DNA of 64,000 nucleotides from Dehalococcoidia bacterium (GTDB taxonomy: Bacteria; Chloroflexota; Dehalococcoidia; Bin125). The DNA lies in assembly GCA_022826965.1 (NCBI GenBank), contig JAJDTU010000013.1, positions 62,001 to 126,000 of the forward strand. The letters are read 5' to 3'. Positions within the stretch are counted from its first letter, which is position 1, and the number at the start of each line of letters is the position of its first letter. The position numbers were made by a program, and so were the translations under genes. A model generated the notes under the pieces. It was given only the letters and a program-made list of their open reading frames with translations, did not search any database and was not told the DNA's origin. This document shows positions 35,815 through 40,696 of the stretch, one piece after another.

Positions 35815-35994
35815 AGGTTCTCTCCTTGCTGGGGATGAAGTTCACGTTCGGCAAACAGGGTAGAGGTGCGTCAGACCCGCCGCCGCCAGACGGGGCGCAG
35901 GAACCCGTTCGCCGAATCGATCGGGGACCAGCCGTGTTTCCGAATCTCCCTCGCAGTGGAAGCTGTGACGGAACAACTGAGAGGACCAGGTTGC

Positions 35995-38898
35995 CTAGAT
36001 CACGAACTTCGCGTCGGGCGGGCGGGCTTTGCCGCCGTGGACGGAGGGCTCGGCGCACCACTTGGCGGCGAGCCGGCGGACACCTTCGTAGACGGACTGG
36101 TCGAAGTCGAGCAGGTCGCAGATGACGCGACGGTCGAGCAAGGCGCGGTTGGGGTCGGCGTCGGCAAGGTAGGCGGGTTGGAGGTCGCGCTCGCGCAAGT
36201 CGTTGAAGATGTCTTCGGCGGTTTGGAGTTGGTCGTCGCTCAGGGCGCGGAAGTCGAGGATGGAGAGAGACTCCGCGAGCCGGATCGTCATGCTTGCCTT
36301 GCTGGACTGTTGTCGGCTCGAATGCCACCAATATGAGACCAGTCCCAAGGTGCTGTTGCCCCAGATTGCCAGCGCGTGGTCGAAGCGGTCGTCGTCAAAT
36401 TGTACGTTTGGCCATACACGTCCGCCGAGCGATGGGGCATCGGTGAATGCAACTGCTAGCGCCTGAGCGCCGAACGTAAAGTCTCGGTTCACGTGGCAGC
36501 GGCTTGACGTAGCCCAAATGTCGGCTGCTCTTGCCGACATTCCTTGCCGAACCAAGAGTTGAGAGTCAGGACTGCACACGATTCGCTTCTCGTTCACGTG
36601 TGCGTGATTCCACAAAGAGGGATACGTCGCTGTCGGGCTGAACGAGTGCTTCTGAAATGGACCGCGGGGCGGCGGGCCGATGATATCGCGATCGACCTTG
36701 CCTAATCGGGCTATCTGGTTGAGGGAACAAGCACTTAGCTCGATAGATTCAAGTGATCCAGGAAGCCAAAGCTGCGAGGCTTGCAGCGCGTAGGCGGTCT
36801 GGGCGATTGCGTAGTCGGCGATGCGCACCGCGCCCCATGCGCCGTCGGGATTGCCGGTGGCTAGCAACTTCTCAGCCGCGACGTCGTCACCGAGCAAGAT
36901 TGGGGTCCCACCATAGGGGCCGTCTTCAATGCGGCGCGTCTGATCGTCGCGAGTGATCTGGATGGCCAGTGCGTAGGCGTGTTCCAGTCCATCCAAGCGA
37001 GCCTTGAGCGCGGTGAAACTGTCGGGCGCGTTGGCATCCTCCGCACGCCGTGCGATGACCAGGCATTCGGCCATGCCGGTATCGGACGAGAACGACATCT
37101 CGCTCTCGCCGGCGGAGGCGATGCTGAGCACCGACAGATCGGTGTAGTCGCCCGCGAGCATGTTGCGGAACCGCTGCCAGGAGAGGCCGGTTGCGGCGGT
37201 GAGTGGCAGGACGAGGGCCAGCACGCCGCCCGGTTTCAGTTTGCGGTGAGCGAGCGCCGCGAATGCCGAGGCGATGCCGGCGTTGCCGTGATAGCAGGAG
37301 TTCTTCCCAAGTCGATTGAGGCGTTTGCCCATCGCGGTCTGATCGGCGTCTGACGCGTCGAACGCGGCAACTGCAGGATTGACGACGTCGGCGTGCGCGC
37401 CTTCGTGATTGGTAGCGCGGGTGAACGGTGGATTCATGATCACGAGGTCGAACCCGTCGTCGGGGATATCGACCGCGACCTGGGCCGCGGTTTCTTCCCC
37501 AGCGCTGCCAGCGCGCAAGGCGGGATCGCTGGTGTTGAAGAGCGTGAGTAGGTTTGAACTCTGCATCAGTTCGAGCGAGCCGATTGGGACGCTGTCGTCG
37601 TCCTGGCGTCCGTAGGGCATCGTGTAGAGGCGCGATTGCTGGTAGCCGACGTTGGGCTGCACGCCGGAGAGGGTTGCGCCGGTGATGTGCACGGCCGAGG
37701 GCATGACGTCGCAGCCGTACAAGACCTCTTCCATCATCATGGAATGCAGTTCGGCGGGGTCTCCCCCGGCGCGTTCGTGGCGGGCGGCGATTTGCTCGTA
37801 GACCGCCGACAGCAGAGCCCCGGTACCGCAGGCGAAATCACCGATGCGCAGCCTGGCGATCGTCTCTGGATCTGACCAGTCGATGCCCTGCAGTTTGGAG
37901 ACCGCGAGACGTGCCAGCAGCGCCGCCGAAGCGGGTCGGGTGTAGAAGGTGGCGAGGTACTTGCGGTCGGAAATCAGGCGCTGGAAGATGCGCCCGGTGA
38001 GGTCGCGGGCGTTGTCGACGCCGGCGGCGTCGACCTCCTGGGCGGTATCGCGCAGTTGATCGAGGATCTGTTTGGCGGGTCCGGAGGGAAACTGGCGGAG
38101 CAAGTCTCGGGCGATGGCGAAGATGGGAAAGTAGTTGATCTTGAGGATGGCGTCCCACGCGGCCAGCGTCTTGAACTGCGGGTTAGGAACGTCGGGTCCG
38201 CAGACCTGCAAGAGCGGGTTGATGCCCTCGTGCATACCGGCGATGCGTTCGTGGAAGATGAGCGCGTTGGCGATGATGGCGCAGGCCATGCGTCGTGTCT
38301 GGGGCACGTTGCGCATCCCGAGCATGTCGGCAACGGAGCGCACGACGTGTCGCTGGGTTTCGGCCATCGCATCCAGAACGACGGCGGCCTGTTCGATGCC
38401 AGACTGAAGCGAGTCGGCGGCCTGGTCAACGGCCTTCTGTGGGACGGAGACGAGGCGGATGAGGTCGGCGAGATCGTCCAGGCCGCCCTCAAGCCAGCCG
38501 CTTAGCGGGAAGCGGATGTGCTGATCGTCCTTGTCGCGTTCGTCGTAGAGGACACAGTAGGAGAGCTGGGCTTCGCGGAGCGTGGATTCGAGGTCGGAGG
38601 CGGACTTGAGGTCCGCCGGATAGCGGAGGGCGATTGCCGCTTCGACCGGTCGGGGTTGCCCTACGATCGTCTTGCCGAGGCGGTCAGCGGCTTCCTGCTC
38701 GGCGGTGTAGGCGGGCAGGAATTCGGCTTCGACGGCGACGGGGGAGCGTCCGGGTGCGGCGATCAGGTTGTCGATCTGGGCGCCGGCTTGTCCGACGATC
38801 AATCCCGTGTGCTCGGAACGGACATCGCAGGAACCCATCATGCTCCGCAGCAGGTTGCCGAGTTCGACATTGACGGTCGGTTCGGTCTGGCTGGGCAC
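35995..38898 (-). CDS. Large N6-adenine DNA methylase (restriction-modification or defence-type)
   Basis: 967 residues from GTG 38898. Motif I GDFACGTGALLSAVYEQI near residue 350 and the catalytic NPPF motif in FDLVIMNPPFTRATNHEG near residue 485 define a gamma-class adenine methyltransferase. The 340-residue N-terminal part has no motif I recognise, and the C-terminal 300 residues probably hold the target-recognition region. Size and domain order resemble single-chain type IIG or related N6-methylases. The gene is separated from the PIN gene by only two bases, has no convincing ribosome binding site, and is probably translationally coupled. No separate restriction subunit is visible. Confidence 0.85.
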   Translation of the reverse strand: MPSQTEPTVNVELGNLLRSMMGSCDVRSEHTGLIVGQAGAQIDNLIAAPGRSPVAVEAEFLPAYTAEQEAADRLGKTIVGQPRPVEAAIALRYPADLKSASDLESTLREAQLSYCVLYDERDKDDQHIRFPLSGWLEGGLDDLADLIRLVSVPQKAVDQAADSLQSGIEQAAVVLDAMAETQRHVVRSVADMLGMRNVPQTRRMACAIIANALIFHERIAGMHEGINPLLQVCGPDVPNPQFKTLAAWDAILKINYFPIFAIARDLLRQFPSGPAKQILDQLRDTAQEVDAAGVDNARDLTGRIFQRLISDRKYLATFYTRPASAALLARLAVSKLQGIDWSDPETIARLRIGDFACGTGALLSAVYEQIAARHERAGGDPAELHSMMMEEVLYGCDVMPSAVHITGATLSGVQPNVGYQQSRLYTMPYGRQDDDSVPIGSLELMQSSNLLTLFNTSDPALRAGSAGEETAAQVAVDIPDDGFDLVIMNPPFTRATNHEGAHADVVNPAVAAFDASDADQTAMGKRLNRLGKNSCYHGNAGIASAFAALAHRKLKPGGVLALVLPLTAATGLSWQRFRNMLAGDYTDLSVLSIASAGESEMSFSSDTGMAECLVIARRAEDANAPDSFTALKARLDGLEHAYALAIQITRDDQTRRIEDGPYGGTPILLGDDVAAEKLLATGNPDGAWGAVRIADYAIAQTAYALQASQLWLPGSLESIELSACSLNQIARLGKVDRDIIGPPPRGPFQKHSFSPTATYPSLWNHAHVNEKRIVCSPDSQLLVRQGMSARAADIWATSSRCHVNRDFTFGAQALAVAFTDAPSLGGRVWPNVQFDDDRFDHALAIWGNSTLGLVSYWWHSSRQQSSKASMTIRLAESLSILDFRALSDDQLQTAEDIFNDLRERDLQPAYLADADPNRALLDRRVICDLLDFDQSVYEGVRRLAAKWCAEPSVHGGKARPPDAKFVI

Positions 38899-38900
38899 AG

Positions 38901-39323
38901 CTAGGATTCGTTGGGGTTCTGCATGAGACGCGTGTAGCCGGCTCGCTCGAAGTCCCTGTCCGCGGTGAGCACCTCCGTGATCTTGTAATCGTCCATGACT
39001 TCCATGGAGATGCAGTCGACGAGGCTCGCAGTTCGATCGCCCTGACGCTCATAGCGTTCGATCGCGCGGTTAAACAAACCTGCGTGCTGGTGAACCACTT
39101 CCATATTCGGATGGACTAAGGCCGAACGCAACAATAGCAATGCGCCCTTGCGGATCTCCTGTTTCTCGCTCAGTGAAGCGAGAACTTCGCCAAACACGCT
39201 ATCGGTGGTGACGACCGCAGCGTCGCCTAGTTTGCTCTCTGCAAGCTTGGCCTCGGCATTGTGCTTGTCGTTGGGGTTGGCGAGCGCAATCCAGTAGACG
39301 GTATCGGCGAAGACGTACCTCAC
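38901..39323 (-). CDS. PIN-domain nuclease (VapC-like)
   Basis: 140 residues starting MRYVFADTVYWIALANPND. The four acidic PIN residues are visible as D7, E46, D103 and D122 (ADTVYW, FGEVLAS, LVDCISM, TADRDF), so it should be an active Mg-dependent RNase. It overlaps the upstream gene by ATGA and precedes the methylase. VapC toxins normally pair with a 70-90-residue antitoxin, whereas here the partner is a 302-residue protein. Confidence 0.9.
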   Translation of the reverse strand: MRYVFADTVYWIALANPNDKHNAEAKLAESKLGDAAVVTTDSVFGEVLASLSEKQEIRKGALLLLRSALVHPNMEVVHQHAGLFNRAIERYERQGDRTASLVDCISMEVMDDYKITEVLTADRDFERAGYTRLMQNPNES

Positions 39324-40228
39324 GGAGCGCTGCCCGCTCTTCCGCTGAGATATTCGTCGTGTCGTTCTGCAAGGTCAGTAGGCAAAGATGCCCATACGTC
39401 ATCCGGTACGCCCGAGAACGCAACCGCCACCATCTCAGAGATAGTGGACGCGCCCGAGTCGAATACGCGGTTTGAATCTCCCAGTTCGTCGACCCGATCG
39501 ACCCGATCGATCCGAACGATTTCGCCGTTGCGTCGGAACTGCCCAGATCCCCTCAGGCGAACCCGCAATGAATCGTGCTCATGTAACGCTTCAGTAATGC
39601 GACGTTCCTGTTCTTCGGAAAACTTGGCATCGACTCGCATTGCCGAATCAAGCCACAATTGGAATGTGCGGCGGTGAACATCCGCTGCCAAAACCCGCCC
39701 GCTGATGTCTACGATGTCCGTTGTCATATCCGGCACGCGATCCAAGAACTGCTGGCGGGCAGCGGCATTGATGGAGGCTCCGGCCTTACCGGTTGGCACG
39801 AACTCTAGGGTGCAACCCAGGGGGAGTTTTGTGCCCAAATCTCCGTAGATGTCGCACAACTGATCATCCAACTCTTCAGGAAAGGCCAGACCGTTCTGCG
39901 AAGCTTCAAAGGCTCTATGCACGAATGTGACGGCCTCAGTAACATCGTCCTCGAAGAGATGAAGCTGCTCCTGGGGTGCTGTTCGTACGAGTGCTGGTAC
40001 AGCACTACCCTCCCCAATGTCTCGAAGTCCAAGCTGGACGGATTCATCGAACCCGTTTGGCAGGCGTTGGCGACTAGGATTTCGCCTTCTCCAGAGCGAG
40101 CGTGCCGTTTCGGTGACGGCATGGATGATCTTGACGATTTCCACGAGCGCCGGTTCGTCCAGCGTCTTCGAATCGTAGACTCCGCCTCGGAAATGCAGTT
40201 CGAGTACGTGGTCGGTTTGGGATTCCAT
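39320..40228 (-). CDS. Conserved-looking unknown protein, first gene of the PIN-methylase cassette
   Basis: About 302 residues from ATG 40228 (MESQTDHVLELHFRGGVYD); a GTG at 40246 is an alternative. I recognise no named domain. Visible features: an acidic N-terminal domain (VTETARSLWRRRNPSRQRLPNG), a central mixed domain, and a C-terminal tail with FSGVPDDVWASLPTDLAER, reminiscent of antitoxin tails that bind a PIN partner. Translation is coupled to the PIN gene by ATGA. It may be the antitoxin or sensor of the cassette. GC content is a little lower here than in the neighbours, suggesting transfer. Confidence 0.7.
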   Translation of the reverse strand: MESQTDHVLELHFRGGVYDSKTLDEPALVEIVKIIHAVTETARSLWRRRNPSRQRLPNGFDESVQLGLRDIGEGSAVPALVRTAPQEQLHLFEDDVTEAVTFVHRAFEASQNGLAFPEELDDQLCDIYGDLGTKLPLGCTLEFVPTGKAGASINAAARQQFLDRVPDMTTDIVDISGRVLAADVHRRTFQLWLDSAMRVDAKFSEEQERRITEALHEHDSLRVRLRGSGQFRRNGEIVRIDRVDRVDELGDSNRVFDSGASTISEMVAVAFSGVPDDVWASLPTDLAERHDEYLSGRAGSAP

Positions 40229-40639
40229 TGGCCGTGTTCCGATCACGCGAGATCTTCACGTGCCTGAGATTAGCAGAGCCAGCGGGAGATTCCTGCTGAA
40301 GCACACTGTCAATCGAGTAGTGGTTCGGGGTCGAGACCGTGAATGTGAAGTGCCCGCATATTCCGTAAAGAGAATCAGCAGTCCGAGGTCGATTGCTCCA
40401 TATGGACCCTCTCTTTTGACAGAACATCAGTCCTGTTACCATAAGTCCTAGCATCAGGAAAGGAGCCGCCGCGCTGATCGCCCTCAACATCCGAGCCTTC
40501 CGGGCCTGAGTTCCCAGCTCACATCCAGGTCGCAGCGGTCTGCAAGATCGCCTTAAGCCTGTCGCGCAGCAACGCACGTCTCGCCGACGTTGTGCGCTCC
40601 CGCCTGCCCAACAACGACGACTGAAGACGCCGAAGATTC

Positions 40640-40696
40640 CTACGCCGATCCGCCCGGCCCGCCGCCGATCACCACGATGTCGCACGACTCCGCCAT
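40640..40696 (-). pseudogene. N-terminal remnant of an FAD-dependent oxidoreductase
   Basis: ATG 40696 begins MAESCDIVVIGGGPGGSA, the dinucleotide-binding motif (GxGxxG) of an FAD-dependent oxidoreductase, and is stopped by TAG at 40642-40640 after 18 codons. About 45 bases further a short stretch in the same frame reads HNVGETCVAAR, resembling the 'HVGES' block of such enzymes, then ends in TAA. The remainder is absent. It lies in the 535-base gap 40229-40763, which otherwise holds no convincing gene. Confidence 0.5.

What the first reader, a model, noticed from the sequence alone, without database searches (positions are those of the whole stretch)
35995..40228. Three-gene cassette: unknown 302-aa protein, PIN nuclease, 967-aa adenine methylase
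The genes overlap or nearly abut (ATGA, 2-base gap), implying one transcript and linked function. A PIN RNase directly coupled to a large N6-methylase is not a standard restriction-modification or VapBC layout. The unknown first protein occupies the antitoxin position but is four times too long. Lower GC upstream and a gene remnant next to it suggest an inserted accessory unit. Together they could be a defence system in which methylation marks self DNA and the PIN nuclease is the effector.
Basis: partly seen in the sequence, partly recalled or inferred. Interest (0 to 1): 0.62.

Follow-up and report, generated by a model that had tools for sequence, protein, structure and literature searches.

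The report
Toxin–antitoxin pair beside restriction enzyme
This is a two-gene self-poisoning switch (an RNA-cutting PIN toxin and an unusually large antitoxin with an added probable sensor region) inserted with a one-protein restriction-modification enzyme; the same toxin pair recurs inside unrelated restriction-modification loci across bacterial phyla, which suggests a back-up defence tied to those systems.

Summary
The three genes are there as described: U (302 aa), PIN (140 aa), methylase (967 aa), minus strand. They fill one 4.76-kb block (35,886-40,641) that replaces an oxidoreductase/ABC-transporter block still present in sister genomes.

The cassette is two things.

(1) U+PIN is a toxin-antitoxin pair. 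Complete short-form U genes, in several phyla, are followed by an abutting or overlapping PIN of one subfamily (nearest solved: VapC20). U's last ~45 residues are a VapB-type tail shared with 60-90-aa antitoxins of related PINs. Its first ~255 residues (alpha/beta region plus predicted OB fold) are homologous to PADLOC's defence candidate PDC-M32A, where another C-terminus and partner (M32B) replace tail and PIN.

(2) The 967-aa protein is probably a one-protein type IIG/IIL-like restriction-modification enzyme (N-terminal PD-(D/E)XK-like domain; best fold matches DrdV, BpuSI). Its relatives lack U-PIN.

U-PIN lies within 4 kb of restriction-modification genes in 8 of 20 loci (types I, III, ISP, IIG) against 1 of 16 control PIN loci; the order U-PIN-methylase recurs with type I hsdM in two other phyla.

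Best reading: a restriction-coupled suicide/dormancy module, a new variant of PDC-M32. The coupling is inferred, not shown.

The parts
39320..40228 (-). U (302 aa): large antitoxin, N-terminal part homologous to PADLOC PDC-M32A
   Evidence: PADLOC PDC-M32A E 1.2e-34 over residues 6-249; family alignment A4; followed by PIN in its relatives
39749..40228 (-). U residues 1-160: alpha/beta region of unknown function, conserved RxRLP and GSxAVP motifs
   Evidence: alignment A4; AlphaFold2 model, mean pLDDT 79.9
39479..39736 (-). U residues 165-250: predicted OB-fold domain
   Evidence: AlphaFold2 secondary structure; Foldseek PDB hits are mostly OB folds (Stn1/Ten1, RPA14, Rim1, LysRS), best E 2.8e-3, domain-level only
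39323..39466 (-). U residues 255-302: VapB-type toxin-binding tail
   Evidence: tail HMM matches short antitoxins of the same PIN subfamily with 26-56 bits against at most 9.6 bits in 2,100 shuffles; a 74-aa antitoxin in sister genome G005 matches only this tail and precedes a PIN
38901..39323 (-). PIN toxin (140 aa), catalytic D7, E46, D103, D122 intact
   Evidence: PF01850; the four acids invariant in 14 aligned sequences; profile match to VapC20 E 3e-18
35995..38898 (-). 967-aa N6-adenine methylase, probable type IIG/IIL-like restriction-modification enzyme
   Evidence: Eco57I PF07669; motifs DFACGTG and NPPF; best whole-model fold matches DrdV and BpuSI, E 8e-11 to 6e-10
38539..38898 (-). 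methylase residues 1-120: PD-(D/E)XK-like nuclease domain (E29, D43, E57-x-E59)
   Evidence: E29, D43, E57 invariant in A8; three distant members read ECK; predicted alpha-beta-beta-beta-alpha-beta order
35886..40641 (.). inserted block carrying exactly the three genes
   Evidence: homology to sister genome G004 stops at 35885 and restarts at 40642; it replaces about 5.66 kb there
40642..40696 (-). remnant (18 codons) of the replaced FAD oxidoreductase

Best explanation
U-PIN is a VapBC-type toxin-antitoxin module whose antitoxin has been enlarged. The C-terminal tail of U binds and silences the PIN RNase; the ~255-residue front part (alpha/beta region plus OB fold, the PDC-M32A part) is a sensor or docking module in place of the small DNA-binding domain of an ordinary VapB. 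The pair moves between restriction-modification loci and here lies in one operon-like array with a single-protein type IIG/IIL-like enzyme. Proposed working: in normal growth U holds PIN. When a phage or plasmid inactivates or overwhelms the restriction enzyme, or its attack produces nucleic-acid intermediates that the OB fold binds, U releases PIN and PIN cuts RNA (by relation to VapC20, possibly the 23S rRNA sarcin-ricin loop), so the cell stops translating and aborts the infection. Supported here: pairing, tail homology, intact catalytic acids, insertion as one block, recurrence next to several restriction-modification types. Inferred: binding of PIN by the tail, the sensor role, the trigger, the RNA target, and any physical or regulatory link to the restriction enzyme.
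For: Pairing: complete short-form U loci are followed by the PIN, with a 4-bp overlap in 11 of 13 measured (the other two: 1-bp overlap and 2-bp gap), and the distance matrices of the two proteins correlate (Mantel r 0.65, p 2e-4, n=13). Antitoxin tail; the short tail-bearing antitoxin of G005. PIN catalytic acids invariant, nearest solved relative VapC20. Defence link: PDC-M32A. Restriction-modification genes within 4 kb in 8/20 short-form and 11/18 long-form loci, 1/16 control loci of related PINs with short antitoxins and 0/14 methylase-family loci; Fisher p 0.023 for the short form, 0.0019 for both forms pooled. A PADLOC scan of 75 control neighbours listed no type I/II/III restriction, modification or specificity family at E<=1e-10, only the methylase model mad2 in 2 proteins. 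Order hsdS-U-PIN-hsdM in L115 (2-bp PIN/hsdM gap, as in the window) and L109; type III mod next to U-PIN in L053; type ISP-like enzyme upstream in L108/L110. Single block insertion.
Against: 12 of 20 short-form loci show no restriction-modification gene within 4 kb (some contigs are cut short). The closest relatives of the window methylase (74%, 66%, 63% identity) have no U-PIN, and U/PIN have lower GC than the methylase, so the association in this genome may be recent. The restriction-modification queries came from the loci themselves, which can favour them; if two control loci are counted positive, p for the short form is 0.07. No sequence or whole-chain PDB fold match identifies the front part of U. 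No experiment links U to any restriction enzyme.
Confidence: 0.55

Rival explanations
1. U-PIN is a self-sufficient anti-phage toxin-antitoxin system: the OB-fold/alpha-beta part of U senses a phage nucleic acid or protein directly, and proximity to restriction-modification genes only reflects shared defence islands.
For: Many loci have no restriction-modification gene nearby; M32A/B occur on plasmids and on a phage-like contig; the U model resembles a phage DUF6575 protein and a DUF6575 protein was found in a functional screen for defence systems in E. coli (PMC9519451).
Against: Placement inside restriction-modification operons (between hsdS and hsdM, 2 bp from the next gene) is tighter than island clustering; control PIN loci are rarely near such genes.
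Confidence: 0.25
2. U-PIN is an addiction element that stabilises the restriction-modification locus or the inserted block and gives no phage protection of its own.
For: Patchy distribution (3 of 61 relatives with a match; 10 of 301 genomes in the phylum); toxin-antitoxin modules commonly act as addiction modules (established knowledge); a 391-bp duplication of the mod 3' end flanking U-PIN in L053 shows recombination around the cassette.
Against: Does not explain the 255-residue extra part of U conserved over phyla, nor its sharing with a different partner in PDC-M32.
Confidence: 0.15
3. One reading: methylation by the 967-aa enzyme marks self DNA and the PIN nuclease is the effector that acts on unmarked invaders.
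For: Three genes in one block and one direction, a 4-bp overlap and a 2-bp gap at the junctions.
Against: PIN belongs with VapC RNases and has an antitoxin; U-PIN occurs without a nearby methylase (L029, L107, L114, L116, L118); methylase relatives lack U-PIN; the methylase has its own probable nuclease domain.
Confidence: 0.05

Closest known systems
PDC-M32 (PADLOC phage defence candidate M32A+M32B; the PDC set comes from guilt-by-embedding work, cited as Payne et al. 2024, doi 10.1101/2024.01.29.577857, in PMC13092281; described in PMC12988326)
   Same: N-terminal ~255 residues of U are homologous to M32A (E 1e-34); two neighbouring genes, overlapping in most loci seen; embedded in or next to restriction-modification loci.
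   Different: U lacks the ~110-residue C-terminal domain of M32A and has a VapB tail instead; the second gene is a PIN, which matches no PADLOC model, not M32B. A two-gene M32A+M32B rule would miss it.
VapBC type II toxin-antitoxin systems (VapC20 as nearest solved relative)
   Same: PIN toxin with four catalytic acids, upstream overlapping antitoxin gene with VapB-type tail.
   Different: Antitoxin about four times longer, with an OB-fold/alpha-beta region instead of a small DNA-binding domain; recurrent placement inside restriction-modification loci.
PrrC / PrrI (type Ic restriction-modification with a latent anticodon nuclease; described in PMC3506569)
   Same: RNase whose gene lies with a restriction-modification locus; acts as back-up when restriction fails.
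   Different: PrrC is an anticodon nuclease with an ABC NTPase domain and no antitoxin gene; here PIN plus a dedicated antitoxin, with types I, III, ISP and IIG. [quoted passage not shown] this module looks like a counter-example.
Type IIG/IIL restriction-modification enzymes (Eco57I, BpuSI, DrdV)
   Same: Single ~970-aa chain, N-terminal PD-(D/E)XK-like domain, helical linker, N6-adenine methylase; DrdV and BpuSI are best fold matches.
   Different: E-x-E instead of E-x-K in the window subfamily; sequence too diverged for curated family cut-offs.

Membership tests
VapBC type II toxin-antitoxin | PIN toxin with conserved acidic active site | tested here: met
   D7, E46, D103, D122 invariant in 14 sequences
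VapBC type II toxin-antitoxin | adjacent, usually upstream overlapping antitoxin gene with a toxin-binding C-terminus | tested here: met
   overlaps; tail HMM; binding itself not tested
VapBC type II toxin-antitoxin | small (~70-100 aa) antitoxin with N-terminal DNA-binding domain (AbrB, RHH, Phd, HTH) | tested here: not met
   302 aa; no Pfam DNA-binding domain; OB fold predicted instead
VapBC type II toxin-antitoxin | toxicity and neutralisation | not testable with these tools
   needs expression assay
PDC-M32 | M32A protein over its whole length | tested here: not met
   only profile positions 4-253 of 375 matched; C-terminal domain absent
PDC-M32 | M32B partner gene | tested here: not met
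   the partner is a PIN with no PADLOC match; long-form loci have M32B
PDC-M32 | embedding in known immune loci | tested here: met
   8 of 20 loci with restriction-modification genes within 4 kb
Type IIG/IIL restriction-modification enzyme | nuclease and N6-adenine methylase in one chain | tested here: met
   motifs and conservation, model and fold match; activity untested
Type IIG/IIL restriction-modification enzyme | D-E-x-K catalytic triad | tested here: inconclusive
   window subfamily has E-x-E; distant members have ECK
BREX / DISARM | companion genes (pglZ, brxC, drmA/B) beside the methylase | tested here: not met
   the other genes beside the block are shared with sister genomes and look metabolic or transport-related by inspection of the gene calls; no profile scan of every window gene was run
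PrrC-type restriction-coupled nuclease | toxin held latent by the restriction-modification complex | not testable with these tools
   needs interaction and phage assays

The most novel reading that the evidence does not exclude
A modular family of restriction-coupled guards: one conserved ~255-residue sensor (alpha/beta plus OB fold) watches the state of very different restriction-modification systems (types I, III, ISP, IIG) and releases interchangeable effectors, a PIN RNase through a VapB tail in one form and M32B in the other. To my knowledge no restriction-embedded toxin with its own sensor-antitoxin has been described.
Probability: 0.3. Interest if true: 0.75.

Novelty: new variant of a known kind. 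Interest (0 to 1): 0.52.

Why it matters
It gives a concrete working model for an uncharacterised defence candidate (PDC-M32): the shared part is a detachable sensor, and one version plugs into a well-understood toxin. It also makes the immunity-suicide coupling hypothesis (PMC3506569), which noted that immune loci seem to lack typical antitoxins, directly testable with a three-gene cassette.

Tried and rejected
Pfam, NCBIfam and PDB sequence searches for U gave nothing significant; DUF6981, HrpD5, GAPDH and a designed protein were chance-level hits and dropped. The idea that methylase and PIN are one obligate system was tested and rejected for the methylase family. The viral collection gave one M32A/B locus and no short-form U, and phage records none, so phage carriage of the PIN form is not supported. 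A six-sequence alignment of both forms was too diverged for collection scans. Remote ~300-aa partners of other PINs (L054-L056; in L055 U-like, PIN, hsdM, hsdS, Mrr, hsdR) match M32A only weakly (E 4e-6 in PADLOC; hhalign probability 50%); kept as a lead and not counted. Promoter and terminator pattern scans were uninformative. The DUF6575 resemblance is a fold-level lead only; the Pfam scan of U did not list DUF6575, and a search of the own genome with that model was uninformative.
Full report
WHAT IS THERE. The window belongs to a 3.0-Mb genome of 14 contigs (G000, contig C2); named relatives of U found later include Chloroflexi/Dehalococcoidia MAGs. On the minus strand lie U (40228-39320, 302 aa), PIN (39323-38901, 140 aa) and an adenine methylase (38898-35995, 967 aa). 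U and PIN overlap by GTGA and PIN and methylase are 2 bp apart. Pfam recognises the PIN and Eco57I domains, nothing in U; PADLOC recognises U as the N-terminal two thirds of PDC-M32A (E 1.2e-34, residues 6-249) and does not recognise the PIN.

THE BLOCK. In sister genomes of the same genus the place between the NIPSNAP-like gene (40764) and the aldolase (35814) holds an FAD oxidoreductase and a peptide ABC transporter (L176, L178-L181), or is nearly empty (L177) (gene names by inspection of the translations). Against G004, whose aldolase is 99% identical, homology stops at 35885 and resumes at 40642: 4,756 bp replace about 5.66 kb. In three other sister genomes (L183, L031, L041) a different member of the same methylase family sits next to the aldolase, so this is a turnover spot for such enzymes. 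Composition splits the block: U 0.564, PIN 0.570, methylase 0.639, window 0.649 GC, so U-PIN and the methylase probably had different histories before they came together (inference).

U AND PIN ARE ONE MODULE. A scan of GTDB contigs with a U profile gave 18 loci from Alpha-, Beta- and Deltaproteobacteria, Verrucomicrobia, Planctomycetes, Acidobacteria, Chloroflexi and others (a few of them are the long form described below). Complete short-form U genes (about 300-315 aa) are followed by a PIN of the same subfamily. Exceptions to a clean call: in L112 the following 148-aa ORF starts like the PIN (MRQVFADAD) but did not reach the HMM threshold and has no Pfam match; in L113, L121 and L123 the PIN frame looks broken. 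In 13 measured loci the overlap is 4 bp in 11. U and PIN distances correlate (Mantel r 0.65, p 2e-4). The catalytic acids of the PIN are invariant; its profile finds VapC20 (23S rRNA-specific endonuclease) as nearest solved relative.

WHY U IS LONG. Related PINs in the phylum are preceded by ordinary 60-90-aa antitoxins. An HMM built only from the last 48 residues of U proteins scores seven of those antitoxins at 26-56 bits, while 2,100 shuffled sequences reach at most 9.6. In sister genome G005 a 74-aa antitoxin that matches only this tail precedes a PIN 41% identical to the window's. So U is an antitoxin whose usual small N-terminal domain is replaced by about 255 residues. AlphaFold2 (mean pLDDT 79.9, pTM 0.53) shows an alpha/beta region (1-160), an OB-fold-like barrel (165-250) and a helical tail; Foldseek PDB hits are mostly OB folds, at domain level only (best E 2.8e-3), and the whole chain resembles a few phage proteins, one of them a DUF6575 protein (E 4e-7). 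DUF6575 occurs in a defence system found by functional screening in E. coli (PMC9519451); this is a lead only.

TWO FORMS, ONE FRONT PART. Genome searches hit either the whole U profile or only positions ~7-257. The second class are mostly 365-430-aa proteins, most of them followed by PDC-M32B. The front part is therefore found with two different partners, and the exchange point is near the end of the OB fold.

RESTRICTION-MODIFICATION CONTEXT. Within 4 kb, 8 of 20 short-form and 11 of 18 long-form loci have a restriction-modification gene; 1 of 16 control loci (related PIN with a short antitoxin) and 0 of 14 methylase-family loci do. Fisher p is 0.023 (short form) and 0.0019 (both). Two short-form loci (L108, L110) are close relatives; removing one gives p 0.037. 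The queries came from the loci themselves, so I checked control neighbours with PADLOC: no type I/II/III restriction, modification or specificity family at E<=1e-10, only the methylase model mad2 in two proteins; counting two control loci gives p 0.07 for the short form alone. The window locus itself is one of the 8. Individual loci are telling: hsdS-U-PIN-hsdM in L115 (2-bp PIN/hsdM gap, as in the window) and L109; type III res/mod beside U-PIN in L053, where 391 bp of the mod 3' end (91.6% identical) is repeated after the PIN; a type ISP-like enzyme 75 bp upstream in L108/L110. Long forms lie between hsdM and hsdS in several loci of the proteobacterial and verrucomicrobial searches.

THE METHYLASE. 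It is probably not just a methylase. Residues 1-120 have the order and conserved residues of a PD-(D/E)XK nuclease (E29, D43, E57-x-E59; ECK in distant members), the model has matching secondary structure at pLDDT mostly 80-90 there, and the whole model (mean pLDDT 69.7) best matches DrdV and BpuSI, with BrxX next. Family members mostly stand without U-PIN or other restriction genes; their methylation specificity and nuclease activity are untested.

INTERPRETATION. The best reading is a toxin-antitoxin module with a sensor-antitoxin, associated with restriction-modification systems, serving as a suicide or dormancy back-up. Pairing, tail homology, block insertion and recurrent context are supported by the results above; tail-PIN binding, the sensor role, the trigger, the RNA target and physical coupling are inferred. 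The idea resembles PrrC/PrrI and the immunity-suicide coupling hypothesis (PMC3506569), but with a dedicated antitoxin, which that paper says immune loci appear to lack.

Noticed in passing
L183, L031 and L041 (sister genomes G007, G010, G006), beside the aldolase: Other members of the same IIG-like methylase family (29-40% identity) occupy the place where the window has its cassette: a turnover spot for these enzymes.
   Followed up: partly
L053:6713-8945: 391 bp of the 3' end of a type III mod gene is repeated (91.6% identity) on the far side of U-PIN, so the cassette probably arrived by recombination at mod, perhaps from a related mod locus.
   Followed up: partly
L186:3535-5084 (IMG/VR 3300009787_000298): The long form (M32A and M32B) lies just downstream of a phage portal-like gene, as possible cargo of a phage or prophage.
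   Followed up: no
G000:C11:4494-6062 (L040): A second, decayed member of the methylase family with an in-frame TAG in the window's own genome.
   Followed up: no
L151:6927-8870: An M32A-type front part inside a 647-aa open frame with a long extension, next to M32B.
   Followed up: no
L055:1-8517: A remote ~299-aa U-like protein overlaps a different PIN directly upstream of hsdM, hsdS, an Mrr protein and hsdR: possibly a third form of the same arrangement.
   Followed up: partly
G000:C4:442640-443056 (L092:4632-5066): A second PIN of the same subfamily in the window's own genome, preceded by an ordinary 91-aa antitoxin with the same type of tail.
   Followed up: partly
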